Shown here: one piece after another, positions 7,720 through 62,490 of the stretch
Layout of the letters: each line of letters starts with the position of its first letter
How positions within the stretch are numbered: the first letter of the stretch is position 1
NCBI GenBank assembly: GCA_946699065.1
Contig: CAMPDV010001191.1
Span: forward strand, 1-64,000
Direction: 5' to 3'
Source: Loxodes magnus
Lineage: Eukaryota; Ciliophora; Karyorelictea; Loxodida; Loxodidae
Length of the DNA stretch: 64,000 nucleotides
Program-made: the position numbers and the translations under genes
Notes under the pieces: model-generated
The model's database searches: none
Told to the model about the DNA's origin: nothing
Seen by the model: only the letters and a program-made list of their open reading frames with translations

Positions 7720-8570
7720 TAATAATAATAATAATGAACTTAAAATTTAAAAATTTTGCAATTTCTGGGATCTCGACCAGATTCTTGCTGCCCTTTTTAA
7801 ATGTGGATGGATACCACAATCAAGTTTTTTACGTGGGAGGTAAGCACTAAAAATCTTCCGAATTTCCAGCAAATATTTTTCTTTTGCAGGCTCCGGTTTC
7901 AGAAATTCATAGCTTATTAAGAGTCTTTCACGTTCTTATTTGTTCTTTTATTTATATTTATTTCCAGCAAACACAATGTTTTAGCAAATGACGATTTTAC
8001 TTGCAAAACCAACATTGTTTAGTTTATCTTTTCTAATTAATTTTATAAATACTTTTTTTTTCTAGTTAATCAATTCTTTTTATTAGATTCAAATCGATAT
8101 TTTCATTGTTCTGTTTTTCTTGAGAATTTGTTTGAGTACAATCTTTTTCTATAATCATTTCTTGGTTTTGTTTAAGATTCGTTTAAGACTGCAAGTATAA
8201 TTGCTATTCCGCGACTAAATTGTTCTAGATTAACCAACGTCTAATTATAAGCAATTCATTATTTTGATTTTCTATAAAATTCATTAATTCTCTTATTTTT
8301 CTCCTTGATTATAAATTGTTTGTTGATACCCTTAGATTGTCATTTTAATTTAATCGAGCTATAGAAAGAGTTCTAATTTCTTTTCAGGCTCATTTGGATT
8401 CTTTTGAATTGTTCCGATCATAGTTTTTCCTTCTGATGAGGAACTTGATTTCTCTTCTAGTTGTTGTTGTTTCATAAATGTTTCATTACCTTCCTTTTTG
8501 CGTTTCTTATTTATTTTTTGGAAAGGCGAATAGATTATTCTATTTTTTTAGCTAATTATTAAGCATTTTT
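7720..8570 (-). pseudogene. Family Q retroelement protein, copy Q2, with ATT tail
   Basis: The minus strand encodes SSSSSEGKTMIGTIQ (about 8428-8460), then NQGE and, after a one-base frameshift, RELMNFIENQNNELLI and WLIQNNLVAEQQLY. The last part aligns residue for residue with copy Q3 at 38.7-38.95 kb. In the EQQLY motif, this copy writes the two glutamines TAG then CAA, and Q3 writes them CAA then TAG, so TAG must be Gln. The 3' end carries a GTGGTATCCATCCAC hairpin (about 7820) also found in Q3, and then an ATT repeat at about 7721-7735 that looks like the element's tail. The frameshift makes it a probable dead copy. Confidence 0.65.
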
Positions 8571-16430: not shown

Positions 16431-16439
16431 ATAATTGTA

Positions 16440-18689: not shown

Positions 18690-19868
18690 AAATAAATTTG
18701 ATTATAGAGCGCGTAGCAGCTCGTTGGTTCACAGCTCTTTATATATCTCAATATATGTCCGTTTCTTCAAGTAAGCCTTCAGGTAATTAAATTAAATTAA
18801 ATTTAAGTTATTCAGAGAAGGGATTGTTTTCTTAATAGTATCCTACTCCCTATCCAACTGATAGGTACTTGTACTCTTGGTGGTCTGTTCCTCCACTCAC
18901 TTTCAAGTCTTCGCAGTGGATTGCTCCGAATATTGCTTTTCTTCCTATAAATATTCCCACTGCTAGTTGGGTAGAATTAGGTTAGTTCGTTTCAAATTTT
19001 CTTTTGGATCTCTTTTCTTTATCTGCATTTCCTTCAGAGATGGTTTATTCTTCCATATATAAAACATTTTTTCTTAAAGTATCTTTCTTTAGTTAATTCG
19101 ATTTGTTTATTCTAGACCTCTTCCAACTCCATTGGAACGGAGTGTGCTGTCTAGATCTTGATATAATTCTTGATATTCTCCATTTTAAGGTTAATATTGT
19201 TTTCAATTTTCTCTAACTTGATGTGCATTTTCTCGTTCATATCATATAGCTATTCCAACTGCCTGTCGAATTCGTCAATTCGAATATTCATGGCAGCTTA
19301 GTTTTTGTTTCTAGGAGCATGCATCTCCTCGTCGTCCAGGTGTCATTGTTGTTCTTGGGCAAGCTCCATAACTTATTTCTCCAGGTCTTAGTTCTAATTA
19401 ACGCTATTATTAATTTAGCCATTTCCTCTTTAGCCATTCCGAGTATTTGTTCCTTGTTTATCTCACCGAGCCCATATATGGTGAGAAGTTCCGAATTTGC
19501 GTCTGAAAGTCGCTTATCTTCTGCTTCTTTGGAAGATTTTCCGTTGAGGTAGTAGCATGGCTATGTTTCTGAGGTTGTCTGGGAGGAGTTGTTTAGAGTT
19601 ATTTTTAGGTCTTCAAGGGAGAATGTTATTATTAGAGGGTCTAGGTTTGGGTTTTAGTCTTTAGAACTTCCTGCTTCCTCTCCTCCTTTTAGACTTTGGA
19701 GGAGGTGGTGTAGAAGCCTTTCTTAAGACCTTACATATTTTTTTTTAACCTTCAGGTAATAGAAATTTTTCTCTTATTAGTTACATATCTTCCTCACTTT
19801 CCTCAATGTTAACTCTTGTTCTTCTGTCTTCTATCTATCTACGCTTTATTAGATCTTTATTGTAAGTT
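18690..19868 (-). mobile_element. 5'-truncated LINE tail containing a nested gag-only element
   Basis: Copy II reads straight across this site (near 60229-60240), so the whole block is an insertion. Its outer parts (18692-18775 and 19749-19862) are the last 200 bp of the LINE found at 40.57-40.77 kb, minus orientation. They include the terminal hairpin GCGCGTAGCAGCTCGTTGG as seen on plus. It is split by the 961-bp gag element below. Reverse transcription that stopped early explains the 5' truncation. Confidence 0.75.
18788..19748 (-). mobile_element. Gag-only retroposon, family D, copy b
   Basis: 961 bp, inverted and nearly identical to 50855-51817. It is flanked by a perfect 12-bp direct repeat CCTTCAGGTAAT (18776-18787 and 19749-19760), a target-site duplication inside an older LINE tail. 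The minus strand starts with AAGAAAGGCTTCTACACC and ends in AATTTAATTTAATTTAATT. It encodes the gag-like protein described at copy a, with the CCHC box here at about 19026-19067. There is no room for endonuclease or reverse transcriptase, so it must be mobilised in trans. Confidence 0.85.
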
Positions 19869-20134: not shown

Positions 20135-21660
20135 ATGAGAATTAAAAAAGCTTTCGTTTATATTTTTCTTTTAACTTCTTTTTATTTATTTTATATTTTC
20201 CTTTTTGCAATTTAGAAAGATAATTAGATTTAAGAAAAATTACTAAATGAAACTTATTTGATTAAAAAGCATGATTATTTAAATGCAAACTTAAAGAACT
20301 GAAGTAGTTAAAATTATCACTTTAAGAAACCTCTTTAACAACTTGACTAACTTAAATAAGATTTTGACTTTTTGAATTTTTAAAATGACTAAGAAACAAT
20401 TTAAAACTACGTGTTTTATAAAAATAGAAATTTAACCTTAAGCAAACAAATTTAAGATAACCTAAAATTACAAAATTTCAATAAATACTTTATTTCCAAC
20501 TTTTAATTCAATATCACATCAAACGAGACAGTTCATTCTCCTGTTTAAATTTTAGAATTTTACGATAAGTAAAGTAATTGTGTAGCAATTGATGCTAAAG
20601 AGATGTGATAAAGATAAACTCTTTAAAAGAATAGATATTTAACAGTTGCAAGTAACTCTAATTATTCGGTGACAATGCCTTTTATTACAATTTTTTATGA
20701 TTTATGTGGATGAAACACTGTATTCTTTTAGTATAATAATTTGGAAGAATGAGAAAATGAAAAGCAATAAAGAGTCTTAAATTTTCTAAAATATAGGAAG
20801 GTTAAAATAGTTTATTACAATATAACTAAACCTAAAACTTTTAAATCAAAGGCAGAATAAAAATCATGACATTAAAACTAAAGATTATGAATTCCTTTAT
20901 TCTTTAAGCCACAAGATTTATTACTGTAAACTGACGGTGATACTGCACTTGCAAATTGCGAATTTCTCAGAAGTCCTGAACATAATAAATATAAGTTTGT
21001 TCATTTCTGAAAAAATTCTTACGGAAATTAATAATAATGATAATTTTATGATGAAAAGGTTAATTAACGTTTACTCTTTTATTCCTTATCTTACAAGGCT
21101 CAAGATTATGTTTAACTTTTCTTTAATGATACAGATAAGTTTACATGAGATGCAAATAAAAAATTTGAATATATTTAGAAAAACATGTAAACTATACATG
21201 CAGGACCATCTTGAGAAGGATATGATGAGCTTTATACGTCGAGTTTACTTGAAAAGTGAGAAAAACTTTAATTTAATAAAACTTGACTAGATTAGTTTTA
21301 TAAATAAAATAACATTAATGAAACTGATTAGCTACTATTCTATGGGTAAAAAAGAAAACTTTTTTCTAGAAAACGTTTATATATTTAAAAGCCTGCAAAT
21401 TGATGTTTTCAATTATTATAAGTTAAGAATTGAAAAAGTATACAACAATTTTTAGTATATTGTGATCTTTTGCATTTTTAGTTTAGAATTTACAATTAAT
21501 TATAATGAATTTATACTATAAGACTTGGTTGCAATTTTAGAAGAGAATTACTTGATATTGCATACTTTGCAGCAAAAGATAGAGAAACTAAAAATAAAGA
21601 TTGGGAGGATATCATAAAGTATTTGACTCAAAGATAGCATGATTAAAACAGCAGATAAAA
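20135..21660 (+). CDS. Secreted protein of unknown function, family U, copy 1
   Basis: Starts MRIKKAFVYIFLLTSFYL, a clear signal peptide. Read with TAA/TAG = Gln and TGA = Trp, the frame runs over 490 codons to DWEDIIKYLTQ (Trp codon 21602-21604) and stays in phase with copy 2. The two copies differ by net 3 nt up to the TWL site and net 6 nt from there to DWEDI. Landmarks: SNETVHSPVQILEF, AIDAKEM[W], MPFITIFYDLCG[W]N, KPKTFKSKAEQKS[W], TDGDTALANCEFLRSP, HF[W]KNSYG, GPS[W]EGYDEL, LGCNFRRELLDIAYFAAKD. It has several N-glycosylation sequons and no transmembrane segment beyond the leader. CAA at 21101 is TAA in copy 2, and TGA at 21284 is TGG in copy 2. The C-terminus cannot be fixed because no stop is identifiable. 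No known family recognised. Confidence 0.65.
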
Positions 21661-30379: not shown

Positions 30380-32447
30380 TTTCTGCTGTTTAATCATGTT
30401 ATTTTTTAATAAAATATTTTAAGATATCCTCCCAATCTTTATTTTTAGTTTCTTCATCTTTTGCTGCAAATAATGCAATATAAAGTAACTCTAAAATTTC
30501 AACCAAGTTTTTAGTATAAAATCATTATAACTGATTGTAAATTCCATTTCTAAAATGCAGAAAATCACAATATTATAAAAGATATTGTATATTTATCCAA
30601 CTCCTAATTTATAACTATTAAAAGTATAAATTTGTAGGTTTTTAAATATAAAAATGAAATCTATTAATCAATCTATTTCTTCTTTTGTACTCATTATAAT
30701 TAATCATTAAAATAACTGTTCGCCTTTAGGCTTAATTAAAGTTTTAAATGCATAAAATCTCCGTTCCTGCATGTTCATTCATTTTATTGCTCTTTTTCCT
30801 TAACTTCTCTCTTTTAAATAATCTGAGTTGAGAATTTTTTTTCCAGATTGTCCCATTTTCCTATAGGAAAAATTCCGTCGCTCGTTACTTCAGTTGCTAT
30901 TAGTTAACATTTCTCCATATTTTATTCTTATTTTTTTCTATTGGGGACATTTCCGCCATAAATGTCAAGTGCTGTTGCAAATTTAGCACCTTTTTCTTTC
31001 TCTAGGAAATTTCTTTTCTTGTTTCTCTATTTCCATTGGAGTTTCCTTAAGAAGGTTTCTGCAGGTTTCCTTCTATTAATTTGAGCCTAGAATCTAATTT
31101 TACTCAGTTTTTCTCATCTTGCTCTTGCATTACTCAAAATTTATTCTCTAAACTTGCATTTTGCTCATAAACTCAAACTTTAGTTCTTCGGTCTACTGTA
31201 TGGACTTCATCATCATCTTCATGATTTATAAAATCCTGACTTAATACAAATATCTCTTCCTTCTGGGAGTTTAATTCCTCTTCAAATTTTTTTATGTTTC
31301 TAATAAGTTGATGAGTCAGCTGTTTCATCTACTCCGAGTCCATTTGTTCTATTATAGTATTGTCTAGATCAAAGGTAATAGGATCTATATTGAATTATCA
31401 TATTTTACCTTCTTCGTTATTTTTTATCTTTTCGTTATTATTTTTATCGATTCAGTTGAGTGGCCTCTTTTTTCAATTTTCAATGGAGGTGTTGAGAGCT
31501 ATGTTAACTTTTCTGTTCTTAATTTTTATCTCAGCTCTTACTTTTCCTTTGATGGAAGAGCTCCGCTTTATTTTAATTTTTAGGAATTAATATTTTTTAT
31601 AAGTTCTTCTAATCTATTAGATAGTTTTGGTTATTTTTATTAAGAAAAGCGTTAAGTTGAAGAAGATTTGGTGAGAATATGTGCTTCTGGTTTTCTCTCC
31701 TGTTCTCAGGATGTTGTAAAAACCCTTCTTGAAGCCAGTAATTTTATATGATATCTCTTTTGTACCCATAAAATAATAATTAATCAGTTTCATTAATTTT
31801 ATTTTATTTTAAAACTAATCTAGTCAAGTTTAGTGCTATTAAAGTTTTTCTAACTTTTCAAGTAATTTCGATATATAAAGATGGTCCTGAATGTAAGTTT
31901 ACAAATTTTTTCTAAAAATATTCAAATTTTTTATTTGCTTCTCATGTAAATTTATCTGTATCATTAAAGAAAATCTGAACATAATCTTGAGTCTTGTAGG
32001 ATAAGGAATAAAAGAGTAAACGTTAATTAAATGTTTATCATAAAATTACTATTATTATTAACTCCCATGAGCGTTTTTATAGAAATGGAAAAATTTATAT
32101 TTATCATATACTGAATTTCTGAGAAATTCGCAATTTGAAAGTGCAGTATCACAATAAATTTATTGTAATAAATCTTGTGGCTTAAAGAATAAAGGAATTC
32201 ATAAGCTTTAGTTTTAATATCTTGATTTTTATTCTGCATTGGTTTAAAAGTTTTAGGTTTAGTTATATTGTAATGAATTATTTTAATCTTCCTATATTTT
32301 AGAAATCTTAAGACTCTTTATTGCTTATCGTTTCTAATTCTTGTACATCATTATATTAAAAGAATACATTGCTTCATCCGCATAAATCATAAAATATCGT
32401 AATAAAGGGCACTGTTACCAAATAATTTACGTTACTCGCAACTGTTA
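30380..32447 (-). pseudogene. Family U secreted-protein gene, copy 4, split by a retroposon
   Basis: The N-terminal third is missing; the copy begins at the LTVASN equivalent at 32447, directly after a LINE fragment. It is split in two (32447-31756 and 30690-30380) by a 1.07-kb gag-only element. It retains MPFITIFYD-like text, KPQDLL and KNKDWEDILKYF, but has at least two single-base deletions. At sites where copies 1 and 2 have TGA, this copy has TAT in HF[Y]KN and TTA in EK[L]EKL. Those changes fit Trp-to-Tyr and Trp-to-Leu decay. It is a dead copy, useful as an outgroup. Confidence 0.75.
30691..31755 (-). mobile_element. Gag-only retroposon, family B, inserted in family U copy 4
   Basis: About 1,065 bp, flanked by the 10-bp direct repeat TCTTTTGTAC (30681-30690 and 31756-31765). 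The uninterrupted copies 1 and 2 show the gene reading straight through. The 5' end on minus has GGCTTCAAGAAGGGTTTTTA, matching the LINE at 45.17 kb. The protein has a coiled-coil region (QLTHQLIRNIKKFEEELN), ETPMEIEKQEKK, and a CCHC knuckle at 30947-30988 reading CQICNST[TGA]HLWRKC. A frameshift lies between coiled coil and knuckle. No endonuclease or reverse transcriptase is present. Confidence 0.8.
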
Positions 32448-32449
32448 AA

Positions 32450-34240
32450 TTTTAATTTAAAAGAGTTTTTTGACATCTATAACTGCAAAAATTGCTTACT
32501 TCAGATATAGACATTAGTAAATGTTTTTAATGCTTTTTAATGATAATCTTGATCTCTTTAATTTTTAATTACTCTTGTTATAATGAGAATACGAAATTTT
32601 AATACCAGAGTGAGTTAACAATGTATGAAAAATAGTTGTGTAATTTTGAAAGTAAAAAAAAACATAGTTTTTGATATGTTTTATTATCTTTTATTTCTTC
32701 CCTTTTTGCTTTTGCTTTTTCTATTTCTAGTAATTCTAGTCTTATTGGCATAATTTTCTTATGAATATTTTTATTTATGGATCTAAATATTCTATATAAG
32801 ACTTCGGAAAGGAGCTTATAAGTCCTTAATCAAATATAAGGTGTCTTAAGTCGTAATTCTCAATATTTTAGGATAGTAAATTTCTTATATTAGTATGGTA
32901 TATACATTTAAAAATTTGCTCGAATTTATCTTACTCTCCACATATTCAGTAGGGATTATCAATAGGATAATGACAATCTTAGAGATATTTTCTAAAATTA
33001 TAGGATTTGGTTCTTAATTTATATATACTGACAATTTCTTATCTAAGTTATTTTTCAACTTAGTGTACGTAATTACTGAAAATTGGTTAAGATTACTAAC
33101 TGCTCAGTATATAGTTTAGCTGCTTTCATTCTCTTAAACTTTTGAGTAGTTGTATAATAGAAATAAGGTTGCATTTTGTCTCTTATATATTTAGTAAAGG
33201 TTTTTTAATTTGTAATAATTTAGGAATTTTATGATAGATACTATAAAAGTCTAATAATTGTTAACTTGATCATAATATTGAAATCCTTTTTTTCCAGTTG
33301 GTAATGAAAAGAGAGCCTATTGTCGATCTTGGAAAATAAATGATTTCTTATTTATATTTTATACATAATTTAAAAACTTTATTGTCATAATGTGCTTAAA
33401 AGGTAGCCAGTTTAAAAATAGCATGATTCATTAAAAGTTGAAATTGCTGCTTAAAGTGCTTTTCTTTAAATCCTTCTCATGCTTAATTCAATTTCTATTC
33501 TAAACTCCAGTTTTTTTTTGAATACACCATGGAACTAATTCTCTTTCGTATTCTACTTTAGGTAGTTTAAAAAATCTGTATAAAGTTTTAAAATGTCATG
33601 GAGTCACATTCTTATATCTCATTAGTTGAAAATTTATTTTTTTTAAATTTTCACAGATTATACTTGAAGTCTATCCATAGTAGTTCCGCCATCTTATGAA
33701 GATTATTTAATTATTAGTTTATTCTTCCAGATTTAGTATGAGCTTCTTTATGTACTGAGTTAGCTATTTTAACCTCTATATATTTCTTAGTAAGATATCT
33801 AGAAAGTTTGTCATAATTTGAGTTTGGGATAAAAGATCCTAATATTTAAAACATTGTCTTAGATGTTACTTTTGATAAATTCATATTAATCTTCAAGATT
33901 ATCTTAATCTATGTAAAAGAATTCTAGATAAGTTTGCATAAAGATTATTAATATTTTTGCTTATCTATTGCATCTTATAATCTATTTATTTTATATTTCC
34001 TTTGAGTAATCGTTTCCCAAAAGATCATAGTATTATAAAATCGATAGTGATTTGAATATGATCAGAAAATAAACTATTATTATGAGCAGTGAAGTTTGCA
34101 AACTAATTAATATTCAAATGGTTGTTTATATTGGTATAATAATTACAATATAACTATCCAGTGAATAAATGTGCTAATATTACTATCATTATTTCAAGAT
34201 CATCTTGTAATAGAAACTTTTATATCTATATGTATTATCT
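32450..34240 (-). pseudogene. Broken LINE ORF2 (APE end, linker, C-terminus)
   Basis: The minus strand carries FTAHNNSLFSDHIQITIDF (SDH codons at 34068-34076), the terminal motif of an APE endonuclease. A Lys/Gln-rich linker follows, and then, after a region in which I could not find reverse-transcriptase motifs, the C-terminal ICGEQDKFEQIFKC block near 32.95 kb. The last 600 bp is homologous to 11.58-12.06 kb. No YxDD box was found, so the reverse transcriptase core is deleted or badly decayed. It runs into the truncated family U copy 4 at 32447. Confidence 0.6.
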
Positions 34241-38271: not shown

Positions 38272-39965
38272 ATGGAAGGTAAAAAAGGAAGTCACTCACT
38301 AGCTTATTAAAGATAGAGGAGAAAATTGAAGAAACTGAGCAAACTTAGACTTAACCCTAGTAGCAAGCAGCCTTCAAGTACTCCTCTATTTTACTAAGAA
38401 CCCCTTTGGCCACCGAAAAACCTAAGAAGAAGAAAGAATGAAAAAAAAATCAGGGAATTCTAAAAGGTTAATTCGGAATGGCAAGAACAATCTGACATAG
38501 TAGCAATAATAATTGCCAACTTAACAGGAGGTGTCAAAACTCAAAAATAAAACCAAATATGTTATGAAGTCATATAGCAACGGGCTGGCTCTAAATTAGA
38601 AACTTTAAAAAAAAATGGAAATGGAATAGAATATTCGACTATCTAAAAATTAGGCAAAGAACGCAAGAAGAAGAGCTAACAAAGAACTAGAGAAGAAGTA
38701 GAAATCAATGGAACATTTATCAAGCTCCTCTTCAGAAGGCAAAGTAATGGTTGGACAAGTTAATGAGAGCACTTCGCTTTCAATTGAAATGGAAAAGATG
38801 AAAAATTTAATTTCTAAATATGAAGAAGAAACATATAATCAAGGAGAAAGAATTAGAGAGCTTATGAATAACATTGAGGATCAAAATAACGAACTATTAA
38901 TTCTTAGGAAATAGCTTATATAAAACAATATTGTGACAGAACAATAGCTCTATACTCAGTCTTAAAATAATTTCAAACAAGGAGTAAACATGAGTATTGA
39001 AGTCCTCCCTTCTTAAGCAAAAGATTAAGAAATAAATATAGAATAAAATGTTGATAAAAGTTTAATTAAAAGAATAGAACAAATAGAAAAATTAGTTTTG
39101 CCTTAGTTGAATAAAAAAAAAATAGACAAAAAATTGCTGATGTTGTAGGTCGAAATATCACTTATTAAAAAATTGTTAAAAATGATAAAAATTGAAAAAA
39201 AGAGAAGAAATAAAAACATGAAGGATGTTAAACAAACTTTGAATAACCGACTCAGGAATTTATAAATAGAAATTATTTAGTGGTAACATGGAAAATTCAT
39301 TGTGGTAGCCACCCACATTCAAAAAAAGGCCGTGGTATACATCCACGTTAAAAAAAAGGCGGAGCAAAATCGGTTGGAATCCCGAAGAACTCCAAAACTC
39401 TTAACATTTAGTTTACATTATTATTATTAGAAACTTAAGGACCACTTTGAGAAAGAAGTCCAGGGACTTAGAGATGAAATTAAGGATTTTATAAAAAAAT
39501 TAACGGAGTATCTTGAGAAATCGGACAAATTCTAAGAGCAGCCGTAGCAGCAAATAATAGCTCCTGGAAGGATAGAACTAGAAGAGAATAAAAATTCCTT
39601 ACCTATATCTCCTCGCAAAATCTAGCAATCAAGCCTCAGAAATGATGCTACCTATGTGGTAGAGCTTGAAAACTGTGTAGAAAATGCAGAACTTTTGTAG
39701 AAAAATAGAGGAACTTTAGATAATTTAAATTTATCAGGATCAGTAAACAATCAAAAGTAGAGACAAAAGTTACAATATTTAAAAAGAGTACAAAATGTCT
39801 CTACCGTGATTCTATCTGAAGAATGCACAAGAGGAAAATTTCATCCTTAGACAAATTTGGCCTTGTATCAGAGAATTATGTCTCCTTGTGTAGCATATTA
39901 CTAGACAAGCCACATTATTTTAATTTTTAGAACTAACTGGAGGAAAACCGTAAATCCACCGAAAA
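38272..39965 (+). CDS. Family Q coiled-coil protein, copy Q3 (most complete)
   Basis: Begins MEGKKGSHSLAYQ at 38272. The first part is in one frame and the part from about 38.69 kb in another, so one frameshift is likely. The second part has SSSSSEGKVMVGQV (38717-38758), a coiled coil with EMEKMKNLISKYEE, NQGERIRELMNNIEDQNNEL and QLIQNNIVTEQQLYTQSQNN, then a long Lys-rich region. After two tandem hairpins at 39.29-39.37 kb and an ATT run at about 39418, the same frame continues as KDHFEKEVQGLRDEIKDF and SLPISPRK up to a Cys-containing end. Whether the part beyond 39.43 kb belongs to the same protein or to an older element is unclear. Probable ORF1 of a LINE; no enzyme domain seen. Confidence 0.6.
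39298..39358 (+). repeat. Two tandem hairpin units
   Basis: Two copies of a unit of about 28 bp, GTGG-loop-CCAC followed by a run of As and GGC: TGTGGTAGCCACCCACA, then CGTGGTATACATCCACG. A single unit (GTGGTATCCATCCAC) occurs at the same place in copy Q2 near 7820, so the doubling is specific to Q3. Copy Q1 ends inside the equivalent of the first unit. Confidence 0.7.
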
Positions 39966-40639
39966 GCAGAAACAGGTGTTAAAAGTTATTTAACAAATAT
40001 TACCGATTGTTTCATTAATTAAATTAAAATCTTGCTACTTCCTATATGCATATAAGTAAATTGGCAAGACAAAAAGAAGTATAAAAGATTAAAAAAATAT
40101 TTATTAAATTATAAAATTTTAATATCTAAAAGCAAATAAAAATTTAAGGAGATATGATTAATTAAGATATTGAAGCACGTTAAAAGTAAATAAGATCAGT
40201 TGATAAAAATGGACATTTTGCACGAGTTTAAAAATTTATTTAAGATATTGATATTTTATAAAGTAAATATATAAAAATATTTTAAGTTCAATATTTTATA
40301 TTTTACAAATATTTTTTCAACATTGACTAGTATACTTTAAAATATGTAAATTTTTTTTAATTTATATAATTTGCAATTATATAAATGGTTTTTAAAAAAC
40401 TTATACGATTCTTTACATTTTACATTAATAAAAGATGATTTCATTTCTACAATATAAAAATCTATTTTAGTTATAAGTTTCTTTAATTAAAAAATGTTTT
40501 AACTAAAATATTTCCTTTTAAAATTTTATTAATTTATTTAATCATATAAATTTTTCACTTTATCTTTCATAAATAAATTGATTATAGAGCGCGTAGCAAT
40601 CTCGTTGGTGCGCATCTCTTTCCATACTTCAATATACGT

Positions 40640-43425
40640 CCGTTTCTTCAATTAAGCCTTCAAGTAATAGAAATTCTTCTCTTATTAATTACATATCTTC
40701 ATCATTTTCCTCTACATTATCTCTTGTTTTTCTGTCTTCTACCTTTCTACGCTTATTATATCTTTATTGAAAGCTTCCTTTATTTTTTCTTATATATCTT
40801 GCTAGTTTTCGTTTCTAATTCTTTTCTTCTAATCAAACTTTCATAAACTCATAAATACTATCATTTTCCTGCTCTATGATTTTTTCTTATTTCTTTTTCT
40901 CATTCAATTCTCTTTTCTATATATTTTTTTCTCTTTCTAATATATCTTTGATATAATCATAATCTTTTATTACCAAGTCAAATTTAGATCTTTTTAACTC
41001 TTAGGTTCTAATGAATTTCTTAAATTTGGCCATACCTCATATTTTATCAAAAAATTCCATTTCTTATCTCTCTACTCCTATTGCTCTTAGATTTCAAATA
41101 CATATTTATCTTCCTTCTTGTATTCTAAACATTTTTCTATGATATACCTTTCATTTTCTTTTACATCATTGTGGAGCCAGCATTGATTTGTCACAACTAG
41201 GTGTCTCTCTTTTAAGCAATCCTAGCTCCCATTACATCTCGTTCTTATTATAAATATGTAGCATATTTCTTCTTTTCTGTCTTTATTGTATCTCAGGTAG
41301 CTGGTAGCTCTACTACATATTATCAAATCATGTCTTTCTATACTATAACGTTGTTATCTTTTACTCCATTCTTTCTCTTTTTTCTACGTATACTCTATAT
41401 TCTTATATTGCAAGATTAGAGTTTTTCTTCCCTTTTTAGTTGTTATTATAATAATCTATAAATATTTCTTTGTACTCAATTTTTACTTCTAATTTTATTG
41501 CTGTACAATATTATTAAAATATAAAGTTCTCTTCCTTACTTAGGTCGAACATTAATCCGTCTACTGTTTTTTCCTTAGTTACCTATTAATCTGCTTCTTA
41601 ATCTAAACTTTTTTTGTCATGTATAGTGTTTAAATTTCATAAATTAAAATTCTGTTTTAACATCTCATTTTGCACTTAAAAAAGGAGCATCTATGATTGC
41701 TCGTAAAGATCTTCTCTATATTATTTCTAATTACTCCATCACTTATTTTCCTACAAATTATTCACAATATGGAATCACTTCTGTCCCATAACTGAAAAAA
41801 GAGCTTACGAAGGTTTTATTATTATTCCTGCATTATATGGTGTTAATCCTTTATTCATTGTTATTTTTCCCAGTATTCATGTTTACATATTTTATGCTAC
41901 TTCTAGTCTATTCTCCATGTGTTTTTCAAAACTGATGTTTTCTTCTATTATATGACCTAGGTACTAAAAGGTCGTTACTCTTTCGATACTTAAATTTCCC
42001 ATCTCGATAGTATTTCCAATATTTTATCATTTACTATTTTCTGCTGCTTTTCATATTGTTCATTTTGTTTTATCTGAAATTCCAATTTGAATTTTCGTTT
42101 ATTTCCTCTAATTATTCCCATTTACTTATTAAGACTAGATCATCTGCATATGTAAAACATCCTGCATATATTTCTTATGTTCATCCCTCTTCGTTTTTAT
42201 ATTCAATCGTAATTCCTAGCTTTTAATCTTCCAAGTTATGGAGAAGTCTTGCTATTATAAAGTTAAATAGTCTCGGCGACATTATGCTTCCCTGTTTTAG
42301 TCCTTTATTTGTTGCGAATGATTTTGCTATTTAATCAATGATTTTCAATTTAATTTCTTCTTCACAGTAGAAGTTTGCTAGAAGTATAATTATCTAATCC
42401 GGTACTTTTAGATCGTTTAGGATTTATTATATATCTTTACTTTGTACCGAGTCATAAGATTTCTTAATGTCAACAAATATCATAAAAACATCTTTTTTAT
42501 TTCTCATTGATCATTCCTATACTGTTCTTAGATTGGAGATTTATAGTGCGCATGATTTACCTTTTTTAAACCAATATTAATGTTCGCTTTCATCATTATG
42601 CATATATCCTTACAATTGCTAGAAAATTAATGCGTTTATAATTTTTAAAGAATGATTCAATAAAGAGATTGGTCTATAGTTAATTGGGTTTATTAATACT
42701 TTTTTTTATATATAAATATTATGTATTGTTATTTCATCTCCTTAGGTATTAGTCCCTCTTAAATCATCTTAGCTATCATTTTGCAAGTTGCTTCTATTAA
42801 TTTTTTCCCACCAGCTAAAATTATTCCTATTTGAATTTCATCTGGTCCTGCTGCTTTTCATTTCGCCAATTAGTAAATGTTTTCTCAAATTTCATATTAT
42901 TCTATTCCATGAACTGTAACATTCTCTTTCCCGCTGAGTTTGCTTTCTTTGATAACCATTTCTCTATATGCGCATTTCAATCTCCTTTGATCATTACAGT
43001 AAGTCCTTTTTCTATTGCTTATAGTTTAAATTAGATCGCTAAATTATAGAATGGCTCATATTACTCGCTTTCATTTGCAACAGGTGCATATATATTTATT
43101 ACTACCAGTTTTTTCATTACTTCTATGACAATCGCTCTCGCTTCTTCAAAATTTTAGCATTTGGGTTATTTCATTCTATATTTCTCTAATCTCATCACAT
43201 ATGTTTTTTCTAATATAGAATGCTACTTCTTTCCCTTTTTTGACTCCATATTTATTAAACTTTTATATACTGATATATCACATATATCTTTTTTATCTTC
43301 AATCTAAATCTCTTAAATTACCTTTATGTGGATACTTTTTTGAGTCATTAATTTGGCTAGCGACTCTTTTGCACTTCTATATCCCCTAACATTTGCTGTC
43401 CCTATTTTTATGACTTATTCTTATT
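40640..43425 (-). pseudogene. LINE ORF2: APE endonuclease and reverse transcriptase
   Basis: In minus-strand order: IGTANVRGY (43408-43379), an APE start; INIYAP; KGD[TGA]NAH (TGA at 42977-42979), the GDWN catalytic box; an abrupt junction at about 42856 that deletes the endonuclease C-terminus and linker; KAAGPDE; NYRPISLL (42681-42660); FVDIKKSYDSV (motif A, about 42480-42448); GLKQGSIMSPRLFN (motif B, from 42303); YADDLVL (42150-42130), the catalytic aspartates; and FQYLGHIIEE. A run of eight As (T-run 42700-42707) carries a one-base loss just before NYRPIS, and there is another frame change after YADD. TAA and TAG fall at Gln positions (DIQQIL, PDQIIIL). A Cys/Trp-rich C-terminus continues to the terminal hairpin. 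Confidence 0.85.
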
Positions 43426-45370: not shown

Positions 45371-45696
45371 AGGCAACGTTATATTATAAATTAAGTTATG
45401 CTATTTAATTTTTTAATTATATGTAATAAAATTAAAATAAAAAGCAGATTTTTTAATTGGCAGATTACGTTAACTTAAAATCTTTAATATTGTTTAATTT
45501 GGCTATGTATTAGAACAAAAATCAGCTTAGTCTATATTTTCAATTTTATTTGTATTATATTTAAAATGTATAAATTAATTTTTTTCTAAAATTTTATATA
45601 TTATTTTATTTCTTTTTTAAATAATAAAATCATTAATTTTATTTAATTTTTGCTACATTTTTTACTTTATCGAAAAATTTTTGTAGTTTAATAAAT

Positions 45697-47255
45697 ATGA
45701 AGATTAAAAAAGCTTTCGCTTATATTTTTCTTTTAACTTCTTTTTATTTACTTTATGGTTTCCTTTTTGCAATTTAGAAAGAAAGTTAGATTTAAGAAAA
45801 ATTACTAAGTGAAACTTAATTGATTAAAAAACATGATTCTTTAAATGAAAGCTTAAAGAATTAAAGCAGTTAAAAGCATCCTTTTGTGAAACCACTTTAG
45901 CAACTTGACTAACTTAATTAGGATTTTGACTTTCTGAACTTTTAAGATAACTAAGACACAATTTAAAACTATGTCTTTTATAAAAATAGAAATCTAACCT
46001 TAAGCAAAAAAATTTAGGATAACATAAAATTAAAATACTTCAGTAAATATTTTACTTCCAAAGTTTAATTTAATACCACATCAAATGAGACAGTTCATTC
46101 TCCTGTTTAAATTTTAGAATTTTATGATAACTAAAGTAATTGTGTAGCAATTGATGCTAAAGAGATGTGATAAAAATCAACTCTTTAAAAGAATAGATAT
46201 TTAACAGTTTCAAGTAACGCAAATTATTCGGTGACAATGCCTTTTATTACAATTTTTTATGAGTTATGTGGATGAAACACTGTATTCTTTTAGTATAATA
46301 ATTTGGAAGAATGAGAAAATGAAAAGCAATAAAAAATCTTAAATTTTCTAAAATATAGGAAGGTTAAAATAGTTTATTACAATATAACTAAACCTAAAAC
46401 TTTTAAATCAAAGGCAGAATAAAAATCATGACATTAAAACTAAAGATTATGAATTCCATTATTCTTTAAGCCCCAAGATTTATTACTGTAAACTGATGGT
46501 GATACTGCACTTGCAAATTGCGAATTTCTCAGAAGTCCAGCACATAATAAATATAAATTTGTCCATTTCTGAAAAAATTCTTACGGAAGTTAATAATGAT
46601 AATTTTATGATGAAAAGGTTAATTAACGTCTACTCTTTTATTCCTTATCTTACAAGACTTAAGATTTTGTTTAGCTTTTCTTTAATGATACAGATAAATT
46701 TACATGAGATGCAAATAAAAAATTTGAATATATTTAGAAAAACATGTAAACTATACATTCAGGACCGTCTTGAGAAGGATATGATGAACTTCATACGTCG
46801 AGTTTACTTGAAAAGTGAGAAAAACTTTAATATAACTAAACTTGGCTTAATTAGTTTTATAAATAAAATAACATTAATGAAACTGATTAGCTACTATTCT
46901 ATGGGTAAATAAGGAGAAATAGATCGTTTTTCAAATTTCATTTTTATATTTAAAATCCTAAAAATTGATGCTTTAAATAGCTATAAATTAGGAAATGAAT
47001 AAATATACAGCATTTTTTATTATATTGTGATTTCTTGCATTTTTAATTGAGAATTTATAATCAATTGTAATGAATTTATACTATAAAACTTGGTTGTAAT
47101 TTTAGAAGAGAATTACTTGAGATTGCACTATTTGCATCAAAAGATGAATAAACCAAAAATAAAGATTGGGAAGATATCATAAAGTATTTGACTCAAAAAT
47201 AACATGATTAAACAGCAAATAAATATCTTATTTAATTAAATATAAAAATCATAAA
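45697..47255 (+). CDS. Secreted protein of unknown function, family U, copy 2
   Basis: Begins MKIKKAFAYIFLLTSFYL (signal peptide, about 26 residues) and stays in one frame to DWEDIIKYLTQKQHDQ (Trp codon 47167, residue 491). With TGA read as Trp there are about thirteen TGA and two TGG codons. TGA examples are residue 158 (46168), residue 193 (CG[W]N, 46273), HF[W]KNSYG and GPS[W]EGYDEL; TGG are residue 383 (TWL) and residue 491. Insertions relative to copy 1 are all multiples of three, and many differences are synonymous, so the protein was under selection until recently. It is Cys-poor with several Asn-glycosylation sequons, and is probably secreted or lumenal. It is not embedded in the long repeat unit that flanks copies 1 and 3. 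Function unknown. Confidence 0.7.
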
Positions 47256-47339
47256 ATTTTATTTATTTAAAATTAATAGTTTATTGCATTTTATGATATA
47301 TTCCTCTATTTTTAAATATATTATAAATTAAAGATGTAA

Positions 47340-50854: not shown

Positions 50855-51817
50855 TATTAAAAATATGGAAGGTCTTAAGAAAGGCTTCTACACCACCTCC
50901 TCCAAAGTCTAAAAGGAGGAGAGGAAGCAGGAAGTTCTAAAGACTAAAACCCAAACCTAGACCCTCTAATAATAACATTCTCCCTTGAAGACCTAAAAAT
51001 AACTCTAAACAACTCCTCCCAGACAACCTCAGAAACATAGCCATGCTACTACCTCAACGGAAAATCTTCCAAAGAAGCAGAAGATAAGCGACTTTCAGAC
51101 GCAAATTCGGAACTTCTCACCATATATGGGCTCGGTGAGATAAACAAGGAACAAATACTCGGAATGGCTAAAGAGGAAATGGCTAAATTAATTATAGCGT
51201 TAATTAGCCATAACTAAGACCTAGAGAAATAGGTTAAGGAGCTTGCCCAAGAACAACAATGACACCTGGACGACGAGGAGATGCATGCTCCTAGAAACAA
51301 AAACTAAGCTACCATGAATATTCGAATTGACGAATTCGACAGGCAGTTGGAATAGCTATATGATATGAACGAGAAAATGCACATCAAGTTAGAGAAAATT
51401 GAAAACAATATTAACCTTAAAATGGAGAATATCAAGAATTATATCAAGATCTAGACAGCACACTCCGTTCCAATGGAGTTGGAAGAGGTCTAGAATAAAC
51501 AAATCGAATTAACTAAAGAAAGATACTTTAAGAAAAAATGCTTTATCTGTGGAAGAATAAACCATCTCTAAAGGAAATGCAGATAAAGAAAAGAGATCCA
51601 AAAGAAAATTTGAAACGAACTAGCCTAATTCTACCCAACTAGCAGTGGGAATATTTATAGGAAGAAAAGCAATATTCGGAGCAATCCACTGCGAAGACTT
51701 GAAAGTGACTGGAGGAACAGACCACCAAGAGTTCAAGTACCTATCAGTTGGATAGGGAGTAGGAAACTATTAAGAAAACAATCCCTTCTCTGAATAACTT
51801 AAATTTAATTTAATTTA
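50855..51817 (+). mobile_element. Gag-only retroposon, family D, copy a
   Basis: 963 bp between perfect 14-bp direct repeats ACCTTTTTAAATTA (50841-50854 and 51818-51831). The 5' end has AAGAAAGGCTTCTACACCACC. The protein frame (from about 50890, no in-frame ATG at the start) reads ITFSLEDLKITLNNSS, GLGEINKEQILGMAKEEMA, a coiled coil with FDRQLEQLYDMNEKMHIKLE, VPMELEEVQNKQ, and a complete CCHC knuckle CFICGRINHLQRKC at 51539-51580. A basic C-terminal tail follows, then an AATTT-repeat 3' end. Two TGAs fall in frame (QEQQ[W]HLDDEE and KKI[W]NELAQ). It is nearly identical to the inverted copy at 18788-19748. It has no enzyme domain, so it is probably mobilised by a LINE in trans. Confidence 0.85.
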
Positions 51818-52339
51818 ACCTTTTTAAATTAAATAAGTTCAGTTTAATTTCTTACTCAATTAACTGGTCTCCAAAAACTTATAAAAGGACGTTGAACTCT
51901 TCCATCAGTATATGAGGATTCTCATCAAATTTATTCCTAAAACGAGAGCTTCATATCGTATAACTGGAAAGGAGCTTCTGATCACCAAATTCTTTTAATT
52001 AAAATTAATTAAATAATTTATCTTAAACTTTTATTTTCTATTTTTACTTTACAAAATAAAATCTAAACTTGTAATGTTATAGTTTTTTTCTGATTAAAGT
52101 AAATAAAGTATTTATTTTAAATATTGTAATAAATGAAATTTCCTCCAAATTAGTCATTAAATTATGTTTTATAGTTTTCTTTCTTTTAAACTTTATATTT
52201 TATCTTTTCAAATTAAATAAACTCAGCTAAATTTCTTACTCACTTTAGCTAATAAAATTGAAAATTTATTACTTTTTCGTTAAAAATTTTATTTTTTTAT
52301 AAGTTTTAAATTATTTTATTTAATAAAAATAAAATGCAA

Positions 52340-53520: not shown

Positions 53521-54664
53521 TATAATACAATGCTTCTATTAACTTTTTATTTTGAATTCAACTTACAGTAAAAAACAAAAGAGACTTAAGAGATGTTAAT
53601 ATTGCAAGAAAATAGAACTTTTAGTAAAAAATTGCAGATTTTTCAAGAGTAATTAGGCTAGAGAAAGCAAAGCAGATTAATCTTCTATGAAGAATTATTT
53701 TGTAATCGAAGATAAAATATATAAATTGATTTAAAGTATGGAATTACTTTAAATATAATTAGACACAAGCAAAAACATATGAAAAATTACCACTTGAAGA
53801 GTAATCGGACTAAATAGTGATATCATTAAAGACAAAGAAGAGCAAGAAAAATAATAAGCTATCAAGTAAATCCTTCAAGAATTAATAATTCCTGAAAAAA
53901 GAAAAATATTTTAAATTCCTTGATATTAATTTTAGAGTGTTTAAATGATTGATATATAAAAGTACTATAATCAATTATTTATTTTGATATTTTTATCTAG
54001 TTAAAAAGTTATTTGGACTTAATAATAAAAAAAATAATTGCTTAATGAACTATTTATTAAAATTGTTATTTTTACAACATATTTATTCATCAAAACTAAA
54101 AAAAAACTATAAATTAAAATAATAAATTGATTAAAAACAGTAAGTCTATTATAAAAGAATTGTCATTTCTTGAAATTGATATTTTCTTCTTATGTATTCA
54201 AATATCTTTAAGCTAAAGCTATAGAATATTTAACCTAATCTTATCATTTTTTTTAATAAATTATCTTTTATAATCTTTTTTATTTAAATTAGTATTATTT
54301 TCACTAAATACCATTCCAAAATATAAAAGAGACATATCTTTTTGGTCTTATATATTTTACCTATTTCTGAGCTCCATAAACATTATTTTAATTTGAGTAA
54401 TTTAGTTAACTTATTAGAATTTATGTTTTTGTGCCTATTATTAATGAGCCATCTAATTTTTAACATTTTCTTAATCTTTATCTTCTTAGTTCATTTAATA
54501 GTTTCTTTTTATTTTAATGAATTACTAGCATAAATCGTTGTCTATTTCTTCTAAAGAAAAGCTAGATAAAATCATTTTATATTCAAATTTGTAAATTTGC
54601 TTTTGAGTATGTAAAACGTCATTATATAAATAATTTAAATAGTTAGAACAATCCTCTAAATGAG

Positions 54665-54925
54665 ATTAACTTAAACTCTCATACAAACAAGTAACGACGA
54701 ACTGAGCGAGAAACTGGATAGAAGCCAAGAAGAAAGAACTAAAGTCATCAAGTAACACTAGGAGAAAGACGCCGGATGATTGGGTCTCTTGGGACATAAT
54801 TTCAACCATATCCTATTAGAAGACAGGATTTTCAAGGAAGTGATAGCACTGGAATAGCCAAAATGAGAAATATTTACAAATTTAAAAACTTAATTTAAAG
54901 AACTGCTCACTAATTAAAAAAAAGA
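54665..54925 (+). repeat. SINE-like repeat S3, copy d
   Basis: Copy II equivalent of 13090-13350, differing by a few bases (for example GATGATTGGGTCTCTT against GATGATGGTCTCTT). Confidence 0.6.
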
Positions 54926-54929
54926 TGTT

Positions 54930-55870
54930 AGGATTCTTTGCGGCTCCAAAAAGGCAGGAATTAACGACACCTAGAAAGGCTAGGACTAGGAAAAGGATAC
55001 CAAAATGATCACCTGTCAGGATGAGTCTCCCACCTCTGAAGAATAGTCTAAGAGATAGGTTAAAAATATAATTCGATCGGAAGTCTCGAATTTCACCACA
55101 TAATAGTAAATAAGCTACGATTAGCTGATTAAAGTGATGCTGGACCTCCAGGAAGAAGTAAAAAAGTTGAAAAAAAACAGTAAGAAGTTAATGGAAAAAC
55201 TTTAATTTGTAGAGGAAATAGAAGCGAGGCTCATTACCTAAGAAAGAGAACTTATCGCATTTTGAAATATTTCACAAGACCAGAACAATTATTCATACAC
55301 TAAAAATAGAAGCAGAAAGAACTAGTCAACAAAATAGAAAAATAAAAGAAAACCAGCAAAAATTTATGCGTTAAATGGACCTGAAAGAATAAGAAAATAA
55401 CTCAATGATAATCAAAGGGTAAATGAACTAAGATTTTAGTCGAAATGAGAATCAAAAAGATGCAATTATTGTAACTCTCGAACGCATTTATGGAAAAGAT
55501 GCTAGAAATTTCAAAATTTTAAATAAGAATACTGAAACTACTAGAAGAGGTTGAAGAATAGAAAGAAGATACAACAACTAAAATTTAATTGAAAGATTAT
55601 ATTGCAATAAATTTGAAAAAATATGCAAGATCAAAGATCCAATTATTATTTAGGCGAATAGATACCTCAGTTACAGTATACATAGCAAGGAGAAGAGTTG
55701 TAGAAACTTTAAAATTTTTATATTTAGCCTCTAGAGCAATCTAGAGGTTGGTGGGAAAGAAGTTGAAATACCTCCAAGAACGTAAACATTTGATTTCATA
55801 TTTGTATTTGTAAAGGACTGTGCACCAACGAGGTTCTAGGCCCTATATAATCCAATTTGTTTATTTAAAA
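54930..55870 (+). CDS. Element G gag-like ORF, copy II (better preserved)
   Basis: LIKVMLDLQEEVKKLKKNSK and FVEEIEARLITQERELIAF[TGA]NIS (TGA 55263-55265) are in one frame here, without the frameshift of copy I. The frame continues to a complete CCHC knuckle CNYCNSRTHLWKRC at 55461-55502. A basic tail follows, then the terminal hairpin at 55820-55860. It probably encodes an RNA-binding gag. There is no room for a polymerase, so it is non-autonomous. The S3 repeat lies directly upstream and may be its 5' region. Confidence 0.7.
55815..55865 (+). repeat. Shared LINE/SINE 3'-terminal hairpin
   Basis: GTGCACCAACGAGGTTCTAGG then CCCTATATAATCCAATTTG; partner of the 14.25 kb copy. Confidence 0.55.
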
Positions 55871-56797
55871 ATCTATAAAGAGTACGTTTATTTTATTGTA
55901 ATTGTCTTAATAAAACTTATCATAAAAATTTATAAAAAACTACATAAAATTAATCTATATTAAAATTATCTTTTTCTTTCCTTAAAAATTAGTAAATAAA
56001 CTATAATTTACCAAAAAAAAACTTGCAAATTATAATTTAGAAATTCAATAATTTGTTTTCCAAAATTTAAAACTGGCTAAAACTATTAAAAAGCATTAAA
56101 AGCTAAAAAGAAAATTATAAGATGTAACTTTATATTAATTTTATCTAAATCTTAAAATTTTTTCTATTTAGAAAAAAAAAATTATTTTCTTTTTTTCTAC
56201 GCAAACATAACTAAAAAAATAGAAATAACTAGTACTTAAATTAGTTAATAAATATCAAAAAAACTCTATTGTTTATATAAAACTTTTATATTTTAAAGGT
56301 ATAACATCTGTTATTTGAGTAAACAATAAAAAATCATCAAAGAAATTTATAAAAAATTGCTATTATTATCACCAAAAGCTTTGAATAAAACACTTTATTT
56401 TATTTAAAAAATACGAGATAAAATAAATATTTAAAATTTAAAAAGAATTTTAATTAAAACTTTTATTTTTTTACTTTATTCGTCTTTAAAATCTAGTCAA
56501 ATCCTTTTATCCTTTAAAGATTGACTCTACTTAATCTCATTTATAATATCAACTTTTTATTTGCCTTTTGAATCATATCGAGAATTGGAATGATTAGACA
56601 CAGAAATTAAAATAAGAGCAAAAATAAATCATCAATAAATCAGAAGAAATAATAGAAAATTAACATAAGCTGCAAAAATAAATTGATTAGAAAGAACAGA
56701 AAGAAAAAGGAAGATAGGATATAAACTAAAATCCAAAAAGAATATCTAAGAAATGATATTGCTGAAATTAAAAACATATCTATTATGAATTTGCAAG

Positions 56798-59075: not shown

Positions 59076-59109
59076 GTTAGTTAGAAGATTGATTTTAGGT
59101 TAATTGTTT

Positions 59110-60505: not shown

Positions 60506-60775
60506 ATGAGAATTAAAAAAGCTTTCGTTTATATTTTTCTTTTAGCATTTTTTTATCCCCTGTACACTGTATTTTTTTAAATTTAAAAAGACAGTTAGAC
60601 TTAAGAAAAGTTACTAAATAAAATTTATTTGATTAAAAAGCATGATTCTTTAAATGAAAGCTTAAAGAAATGAAGAAGTTAATCACGCCATTTTAAGGAA
60701 TGTTTTTAGAAACTTGATTAACTTAAATAAGATTTTAACTTTTTGAATTTTTAAGATAACTAAGACATATTATAA
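60506..60775 (+). pseudogene. Family U secreted-protein gene, copy 3 (5' part only)
   Basis: Starts MRIKKAFVYIFLLAFFYPLY, and keeps QIQKDSQ, QEKLLNK, LIKKHDSLNESLKK and LDQLKQDFNFLNFQDNQD. Similarity to copies 1 and 2 then stops near 60770, so about four fifths of the protein is missing. It marks the right end of repeat copy II. Confidence 0.7.
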
Positions 60776-62490
60776 ATATAAAGCTAAATATGCTAAACGG
60801 CATAAGAAACAAAATTTCTGATTAGAAAATTACAAAAATCTATTCAAATCAGCATGAAAATATTTCAGTAGTGTATAAATATTATTAAATAATAGAAATT
60901 CTAAGGAAAAATAAAATATATAAGAATAATAAAACAATAGAAAAAAAGCAAGATTGAACAGAATTTATTGCAGCTAGAATGGAGATATTTACAAAATCAA
61001 TAAAGATGCGATAAAACCAAGATTGGGGAGGATATGAAGGAAAATCTAGAGAAACCCGAGTTTCTAATCTCACTAAAATTGATGATTACAAACATTTTTA
61101 TTATACAGAGAGCATGAGTTGCTACTTTCCAGATAGAGTTGAAATATCTTATAATGGAAATTAAATTTAAATAGTATTGATAATATAAAATTATAAGTGA
61201 AACTTTTAATTAATAATTAAAATTTTAAATCATAAAAAAACATAACATAAGTTCTTAAAGCGATAGCACCGTTAAAAAGTTTATCACTGGTTAATTTTTA
61301 AATTTTTTTATAAGATCATAGGATTATTCCAATCTTCATTAGGAATAATTTCTTCTAATTACATAGCGGTTTGAACAAATTTAATTCTTCTTGACTACAG
61401 GAAATATCTCCAATCTCATTTAGACCCGAACAGTTATCTTTTCTTTTTTTTTCAGCATTGACTATACCTAATAATAATTAGTCTCCACATTATAACTTTT
61501 TCTTTTAGAGTTTTCCTTTTGGAAAACATTAAAATTAAAAACAATACAAACATCTATTAAAAATACGTTCATTTTTTAAATAGTAGAAGCATCAGTAGAA
61601 GTATCTTGTTTTCATTCATTTAAACCTTAAACTATTTTTAGACATTTTTGCATTTTTAATTATTTAGAATTTTTTTTATTCAAAAAAGTTTTTGGGTTCT
61701 GTTATTCTATTATCGTAGGATTATTATCTGGATTGTGAAGAAAAAGAATTTATACATAATTATTTGGTTTATTAATTTCTATTGTTTTTTATTTCATTTT
61801 TTCCAATTCTTAGTTAATTGTGACATTGAAATCTTAGTGCTAATTTTCGTTTTTAATTATTGATTTTCATTTTATTTTTATTGTAAAGTATAAGTTAGAA
61901 AAATCTATTCTTTACTTTATATTTAATTTTTTAATTTTTTTACCAGATATCCTATTTAATATTTTAAATTTTATACTTTTCATTAATAAATAAAACTTTT
62001 AGAAACATAAGATGGAATACTAAGAAATAAATTGATTACATTAAATAATAAACTTGAAATTATTTTTTAAATATATGAAACTGTTAATAGAGTAGAAAAG
62101 TAAAAATTCTAATTTAATATTTAAATAAATTGTATTAATTTCAATTTTTATTAATTATAATATTAACCAAAAGTAAAATATAAAAACATAAAAACTTAAA
62201 TGTAAAATAAAAGGATAGAAAGTAATAATAACTAATATATTATTTTAAATTTTAAAATATTTAAAAAGCAAAATTATTTCTATTAAAATTGCTATTATTG
62301 TAATGTGATTTTTAACTCTTTATATTTATTCTTTTTTATTATTGATAAAAAAATTGTCTAAAAAGGATTGAATAAATAAAAAGTTAATAAGTTATGTTAA
62401 AATTTCTAAAAATATCAAAAGTCTTATTATTTTTATATTTTTATTTAGAGTTAAATTATGTTAATTATCTTTTTCTTATTTTTAGCTAGG
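60776..62490. other. AT-rich DNA with a few GC-richer patches
   Basis: A patch at 60.97-61.08 kb (around GATTGGGGAGGATATGAAGG) is less AT-rich but has no recognisable motif. Nothing else supported. Confidence 0.5.

What the first reader, a model, noticed from the sequence alone, without database searches (positions are those of the whole stretch)
45697..47255. TGA appears to encode tryptophan, so all three standard stops are sense codons here
Seen: family U copies 1 and 2 stay in phase over about 1,470 nt with net differences of 3 and 6 nt. About thirteen TGAs sit at shared positions. One site is TGA in copy 1 (21284) and TGG in copy 2 (46843). A decayed third copy has Tyr at another (HF[TGA]KN). 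Independent elements agree: GD[TGA]N in the LINE endonuclease (42977), F[TGA]NIS in both gag C and gag G, and HED[TGA]QC and ST[TGA]HLW in zinc knuckles. Known: karyorelictids and Condylostoma read UAA/UAG as Gln and UGA as Trp, with stops set by context. Inference: this genome uses such a code. Decay of TGG in pseudogenes is the rival, but it should bring as many frameshifts as TGAs.
Basis: partly seen in the sequence, partly recalled or inferred. Interest (0 to 1): 0.92.

Follow-up and report, generated by a model that had tools for sequence, protein, structure and literature searches.

The report
UGA read as tryptophan, Loxodes-like ciliate
This stretch of an AT-rich ciliate genome, very probably Loxodes magnus, contains genes in which the three usual "stop" words of the genetic code are read as amino acids inside the gene; that code was already known for this group, and the new part is how heavily one gene family uses it and that the family may end with a different stop word than expected.

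Summary
Two family-U copies (20135-21649, 45697-47211) share one frame for 501 codons, differ by in-phase indels of 3 and 6 nt, and are under purifying selection (dN/dS 0.34). Of 15 columns with TGA, 13 are TGA/TGA, one TGA/TGG, one TGA/TAA. The window's own assembly became searchable late. In 50 fetched U-family members, ten conserved Trp columns mix TGA (28-46) with TGG (1-14), while the last conserved Trp is TGG in 46 of 46. In two housekeeping genes of the same genome the only in-domain TGA falls on Trp: TyrRS, W in the best stretch of 4 of 4 shown structures; TrpRS, W in 3 of 4. TAA/TAG fall on Gln. So TGA is Trp and TAA/TAG are Gln inside genes. Assembly size (705.7 Mb), LINE content and code match Loxodes magnus, for which this code (NCBI table 27) is published: the reassignment is not new. 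Possibly new: U uses TGA for about 80% of Trp, and 15 of 24 distant U members seem to end at TAA/TAG (4 at TGA), whereas two LINE families end at TGA and table 27 names UGA as the only stop.

The parts
45697..47211 (+). U2: ORF with 13 TGA, 11 TAG and 33-34 TAA read as sense; ends TAA(47200) CAT GAT TAA(47209)
20135..21649 (+). U1: second selected copy, 15 TGA in frame
46843..46845 (+). TGG codon opposite TGA 21284-21286 of U1
21284..21286 (+). TGA codon opposite TGG 46843-46845 of U2
30390..32469 (-). U3: decayed copy in two pieces; against U1, 7 of 8 indels break the frame and half of the scorable TGA sites are lost
60506..60776 (+). U4: 5' fragment of a U copy; TGA at the site where U1 has TGA and U2 TAA
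40629..43420 (-). Frameshifted LINE ORF2 (reverse transcriptase PF00078, 85.9 bits; endonuclease PF14529, 24.8 bits, below its cut-off of 27.4)
42977..42979 (-). TGA in GD[TGA]N of the endonuclease; distant homologues that align there with the GD..N motif have M, F, W or V
40629..40631 (-). TGA directly after the conserved ORF2 C-terminus (LIEETDVY-TGA); probable stop
18992..19066 (-). Zinc knuckle with TGA 19036 at the H+2 column, where other copies have TGG (13926, 55491, 30958)
51539..51613 (+). Sister knuckle (98% identical element): TAA at 51569 in that column, TGA at 51611
39135..39221 (+). Knuckle with TGA 39138, 39183 and 39219; the first two face TGG 8011 and TGG 7966
7928..8014 (-). 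Knuckle with TGG 8011 and 7966, TGA 7930

Best explanation
The genome uses the karyorelict-type nuclear code: UAA and UAG are read as Gln and UGA as Trp inside genes, and termination depends on position near the 3' end. Shown by sequence: TGA = Trp and TAA/TAG = Gln in two host genes, in family U and between LINE families; TGA absent just before the end of U; TGA directly after the conserved end of LINE ORF2 in two families. Inferred: decoding by a near-cognate tRNA-Trp, stop choice by nearness to the poly(A) tail (both from the literature on this group), and that the organism is Loxodes magnus.
For: U1/U2 selection: dN 0.071, dS 0.209; in 0 of 2000 placements were nonsynonymous codons as few. 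U family, 50 members down to 32% identity to U2: ten conserved Trp columns carry both codons, e.g. TGA 37/TGG 9/other 4 and TGA 38/TGG 11/other 1. Last conserved Trp: TGG 46 of 46 (4 members lack the column); TGA share of Trp 0.75-0.89 in five upstream bins (0.59-0.80 in the 24 distant members) and 0 in the last 20 codons. LINE families A/B, 937 columns: TGG faces TGA in 6 of 8 cases, TGG in none; A/C: TGA in 4 of 5. TyrRS TGA (residue 71) faces W in the best stretch of 4 of 4 shown structures; TrpRS TGA (residue 26) faces W in 3 of 4, F in one; TyrRS TAR residues 20 and 132 face Q in all four best stretches. RT column with TAR: Q in 21 of 22 homologues. The ORF2 end is followed by TGA in 17 family-A rows (window included) and 2 B rows of 22. 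Organism: G000 has 705,730,643 bases against MAC 706 Mbp, with abundant RVT_1/PF14529 LINEs, long low-complexity repeats and table 27 in PMC11441545.
Against: Against 23 distant LINE homologues the summed score does not name Trp for TGA (K best; F best and Trp not among the best eight). In gag alignments TGG faces TAR 4 times and TGA 3 times. ATG faces ATA 12 times and ATG 14 times in LINE A/B, so an A/G exchange at the third place is common even where it changes the amino acid. B/C gives only one TGG/TGA pair among 3 TGG cases. One U column is TGA in U1 but TAA in U2. In the second half of two shown TyrRS chains the TGA position faces L, and the four shown chains are two closely similar pairs. 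LINE family C (3 rows) and many U members have no TGA at their end, which does not fit table 27 as published. No tRNA was found in the window; no transcript or protein data were available.
Confidence: 0.96

Rival explanations
1. TGA is a real stop and its in-frame occurrences are TGG codons decayed in pseudogenes.
For: The window is repeat-rich; U3 and the LINE are broken by frameshifts and U4 is a fragment; TGG to TGA is a single transition; TGA retention in U1/U2 alone is p 0.07.
Against: U1/U2 under purifying selection; U family matched in TGA-rich open frames at 30-89% identity; TGA at Trp in TyrRS and TrpRS; the decayed U3 loses half its scorable TGA sites and breaks frame 7 times.
Confidence: 0.01
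2. TGA encodes another amino acid (Cys as in Euplotes, or a mixture).
For: Distant LINE profile scores do not pick Trp; one gag column has TGA facing TGT.
Against: TGG is an interchange partner in all ten conserved U columns that hold TGA and the commonest partner of TGG between LINE families A/B and A/C is TGA; W at the TyrRS and TrpRS sites.
Confidence: 0.02
3. Condylostoma-like use of all three codons as context-dependent stops (table 28) rather than UGA alone (table 27).
For: In 24 distant U members, 19 have a stop-type codon within 5 codons after the conserved end: first one TAA 11, TGA 4, TAG 4 (expected about 0.39 per member, p about 1e-4). CAR gives way to TAR just past the end: 22:7 at +1,+2 against 5:28 at +3..+5 in all members; distant members only 8:5 against 3:13, p 0.027. 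PMC11441545 reports depletion of UAA as well as UGA before stops.
Against: PMC11441545 states UGA is the only stop; LINE families A and B end in TGA; CAA is also raised there (11 of 120), so the tail may be Gln-rich and TAR sense; members share ancestry and some fetched loci are near-identical.
Confidence: 0.35
4. UAA/UAG encode Glu (Blastocrithidia-type code) instead of Gln.
For: UGA = Trp is shared with that code; TAR faces GAR 7 times in gag alignments.
Against: TAR faces CAR 23 times in the same alignments, which were however made with TAR scored as Q; RT column Q 21 of 22, with TAR masked; TyrRS TAR at Q of MHIAQG and AAQ in the best stretch of all four shown structures.
Confidence: 0.01

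Closest known systems
Karyorelict nuclear code (NCBI table 27), Loxodes magnus
   Same: UAA/UAG = Gln, UGA = Trp, context-dependent UGA stop; LINE-rich assembly of the same size
   Different: Family U uses TGA for about 80% of Trp and many distant members seem to end at TAA/TAG; published text names UGA as the only stop
Condylostoma magnum code (table 28)
   Same: All three codons are sense; all three serve as stops near the transcript end
   Different: A heterotrich; UGA is 0.042% of its codons (PMC4967479 passages) against about 2.6% in U
Amoebophrya sp. ex Karlodinium veneficum
   Same: UAR = Gln, UGA = Trp, UGA sole stop inferred
   Different: A dinoflagellate; UGG strongly favoured over UGA in its dynein genes (PMC6394959 passages)
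Blastocrithidia nonstop
   Same: UGA = Trp, UAA as stop and sense
   Different: UAR = Glu, trypanosomatid (PMC12153298 passages)

Membership tests
Karyorelict code, table 27 | UGA read as Trp inside genes | tested here: met
Karyorelict code, table 27 | UAA and UAG read as Gln | tested here: met
Karyorelict code, table 27 | UGA is the only stop codon | tested here: inconclusive
   LINE families A and B end in TGA; family C and 23 of 50 U members have no TGA in the stretch read past the end
Karyorelict code, table 27 | Sense UGA depleted just before the stop | tested here: met
   last Trp of U is TGG in 46 of 46
Karyorelict code, table 27 | Short 3' UTR, termination near poly(A) | not testable with these tools
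   no transcripts
Karyorelict code, table 27 | tRNA-Trp(CCA) with 4-bp anticodon stem | not tested
   no tRNA in the window; genome not scanned for tRNA
Loxodes magnus | Assembly size, LINE domains, long low-complexity repeats as published | tested here: met
   against PMC11441545; the name itself was given by no tool
Condylostoma code, table 28 | All three codons also act as stops | tested here: inconclusive
Tetrahymena-type code, table 6 | UGA is a stop, never Trp | tested here: not met
Blastocrithidia code | UAR = Glu | tested here: not met

The most novel reading that the evidence does not exclude
In this Loxodes genome UAA and UAG, not only UGA, serve as context-dependent stops: family U genes mostly end at TAA/TAG while LINE ORF2s end at TGA, so all three codons are both sense and stop, as in Condylostoma, and the stop used differs between gene families. 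Alongside this, UGA has become the dominant Trp codon (about 80%) in family U and the LINEs while housekeeping genes keep UGG.
Probability: 0.35. Interest if true: 0.6.

Novelty: already known. Interest (0 to 1): 0.4.

Why it matters
It confirms from raw DNA alone that a nuclear genome can run with no codon reserved for stop. The usable additions are a large gene family in which sense UGA is the rule rather than the exception, a clean switch from UGA to UGG before the end of the protein, and a testable conflict with the statement that UGA is the only stop in this group. A gene caller that treats UGA as stop would cut U1 and U2 at 13 or more places each.

Tried and rejected
Homologues of U outside this genome: none in 5.8 billion proteins (limited to relatives sharing short exact words), Pfam at E 0.01 or E 10 (nothing for the whole protein, two weak hits to a piece, E 0.043 and 0.12), PDB (one weak hit, E 0.54), viral contigs and genome contigs (those scans may leave out the window's own genome, and the peptide patterns may not cover TAA/TAG for Gln). 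Its predicted structure was unusable (pLDDT 35, two sequences), so no fold search was run. A recalled impression that U resembles a membrane glycosyltransferase rests on no call and is not claimed.

Pfam scans of translated stretches found RVT_1 above its cut-off, PF14529 below its cut-off (24.8 against 27.4 bits) and two weak hits (E about 0.02). Not scanned in all three frames: plus strand about 2.7-11.5, 16-21.7, 28-32.2, 40-44.5, 56.5-60.1 and 62.4-64 kb; minus strand about 12.6-16, 20.2-21.7, 23.7-28 and 44.5-54.1 kb. So other genes may have been missed.

Considered and dropped: an intron near the 3' end of U to bring TGA into frame (by eye; the candidate GT is not conserved in U3); the TGA count as evidence by itself (other frames hold as many); reading TGA from distant LINE homologues alone. 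In one search the family-A codon is a majority over eight copies, some frameshifted in places; one search repeats the count with single copies. Counts over U members and LINE rows count sequences, not independent events; some fetched loci are near-identical pairs.

Full report
Observation. Family U has four copies in the window: U1 19868-21736(+), U2 45424-47292(+), U3 32468-30046(-) and a 5' piece U4 60203-60776(+). U1 and U2 share a 501-codon frame from ATG 20135/45697, with indels of 3 and 6 nt inside it and indels of 1 and 8 nt just after it. Substitutions by codon position are 36/37/61, dN/dS 0.34. With substitutions placed at random, keeping their types, the nonsynonymous count was never as low as the observed 74 in 2000 trials. 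TGA stands in 15 columns: TGA/TGA 13, TGA/TGG 1, TGA/TAA 1. The raw number of TGAs is not unusual, since other frames hold 5-7 and 22-24, and the keeping of TGA/TGG at 14 of 15 sites alone is p 0.07; what matters is that a selected frame runs through them. The decayed copy U3 is the control: against U1, 7 of 8 indels break the frame and 6 of 12 scorable TGA sites remain TGA/TGG, against 0 of 2 and 14 of 15 for U1/U2 (Fisher p 0.067 and 0.024).

Other elements in the window. The window is about 22% GC, begins with a 2.5-kb (ATT)n array, and holds a frameshifted LINE with PF00078 and a sub-threshold PF14529 and several gag-like ORFs with CCHC knuckles. In the knuckles TGA faces TGG at 39138/8011, 39183/7966 and 19036 against 13926, 55491 and 30958. 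Gag alignments also show TGA facing other codons (TGA 5, TGG 3, TAR 2, TCA 2, and eight single others; TGG faces TAR 4 times), so gag alone would not settle the question.

Genome. The genome search answered late. The window is contig 1191, bases 1-64000, of an assembly of 705,730,643 bases in 7843 contigs. PMC11441545 (passages, sections 11 and 9) reports a Loxodes magnus MAC assembly of 706 Mbp, rich in RVT_1 and PF14529 LINEs and in low-complexity repeats annotated at 1 kb or more, with code table 27. I infer the organism from this match; no tool named it.

LINEs. The best RVT_1 matches are open for about 285 codons with roughly 8 TGA, 4 TAG and 8 TAA inside (150 scored of 3403 candidates). 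I took 28 loci (8, 20). Against 23 distant homologues, family-A TGA columns are not Trp columns while TGG columns are W/F/Y: a result against the reading. Closer families resolve it. Using single copies A = L024, B = L012, C = L009: A/B 937 columns, TGG partners TGA 6, TAT 1, GGA 1; A/C 676 columns, TGG partners TGA 4, TAT 1; B/C 738 columns, TGG partners GGG 1, TGG 1, TGA 1. As a control, ATG faces ATA 12 times in A/B, so third-place A/G exchange is common anyway. The LTDMW column is TGG in A, where 11 of 19 homologues have W, and TGA in B and C, where the separate alignments show W in 4 of 14 and 1 of 11. The conserved ORF2 C-terminus is followed by TGA in 17 family-A rows (window included) and 2 B rows, but not in 3 C rows; the pattern found 22 rows, and 7 of the 28 loci were not found by it. 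In the A and B rows the previous TGA in that frame lies 55-79 codons before the motif.

Family U in the genome. The U2 protein has 94 matches (86 of 245 candidates scored), from 89% for its own locus down to 30%, with 1 to 18 TGAs inside. Fifty loci were aligned, 30 and 20, all 50 kept, with TGA masked as X. Ten conserved Trp columns contain both codons: TGA/TGG/other 41/6/3, 44/3/3, 46/2/2, 44/4/2, 42/4/4, 39/1/7, 37/9/4, 28/14/8, 35/10/5 and 38/11/1. The eleventh and last, 7 columns before the last conserved Leu, is TGG in 46 of 46; four members lack the column. Up to the conserved end TGA is 657 and TGG 166 of 25,346 codons. The TGA share of Trp is 0.75-0.89 in five bins upstream (0.59-0.80 in the 24 distant members) and 0 in the last 20 codons. 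This is the avoidance expected if UGA near the end terminates.

Ends of U. In 23 of 50 members no TGA follows in the stretch read, up to 60 codons past the match. In 24 distant members, 19 have a stop-type codon within 5 codons of the conserved Tyr-Leu, first one TAA 11, TGA 4, TAG 4, against an expectation of about 0.39 per member (p about 1e-4). Gln codons switch from CAR to TAR across the end (22:7 to 5:28; distant members 8:5 to 3:13, p 0.027). But CAA is also raised there (11 of 120), so a Gln-rich tail is an alternative, and members share ancestry. This is the basis of the novel case, not a demonstration.

Housekeeping genes. PF00579 found four open synthetase-like frames, two with one TGA each and two with none; the two with TGA were fetched. 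In L082, a TyrRS by its PDB matches (best E 1.6e-138), the single TGA (YLIEI-TGA-KAAGMD) faces W in the best stretch of the four shown chains, which form two closely similar pairs; in the second matched half of two of them it faces L. TARs at MHIA-Q-G and AA-Q face Q in all four best stretches. In L083, a TrpRS whose best match is a mitochondrial enzyme, the single TGA faces W in three shown chains and F in one. Together these two stretches have TGA 2 and TGG 8, so they favour TGG. Three eRF1 domain matches have no TGA.

Literature. PMC4967479 (passages): UGA use 0.042% in C. magnum, 0.12% in Parduczia, Trp by mass spectrometry in C. magnum. PMC12005148 and PMC6394959 (passages), PMC13092985 (passages), PMC12153298 (passages). 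The paper on karyorelict codes by Seah and co-workers was seen only as a reference. I did not search print for the U family or for UAA stops in Loxodes beyond, so no claim is made that these are unpublished.

Verdict. TGA = Trp and TAA/TAG = Gln in this genome are well established by sequence; the code itself is already known for Loxodes. The dominance of UGA in family U and the apparent TAA/TAG ends are worth a transcript-level check.

Noticed in passing
1-2541: 2.5-kb (ATT)n array at the start of the window, which is also the start of its contig.
   Followed up: no
18787-19742 and 50859-51818: Two 98% identical 0.96-kb copies of a GC-richer (36.8%) gag-bearing element; the first is flanked by a 12-13 nt repeat and an uninterrupted relative of its target lies near 40640-40690, which suggests a target-site duplication.
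   Followed up: partly
12078-18131 and 53649-60103: 6-kb direct repeat, 93-94% identical, carrying a gag-like ORF; the second copy holds about 0.4 kb more between the two aligned blocks.
   Followed up: no
L009, L027, L010: LINE family C has two adjacent TAG codons near its C-terminus and no TGA at the end, unlike families A and B.
   Followed up: partly
L033-L036, all on contig C94: Four U copies at 90-96% identity to U2 lie within about 55 kb, so U is locally clustered.
   Followed up: no
U3, opposite U1 20750, 21257 and 21401: Three of the lost TGA sites in the decayed copy are TTA, an uneven spectrum for random decay.
   Followed up: no
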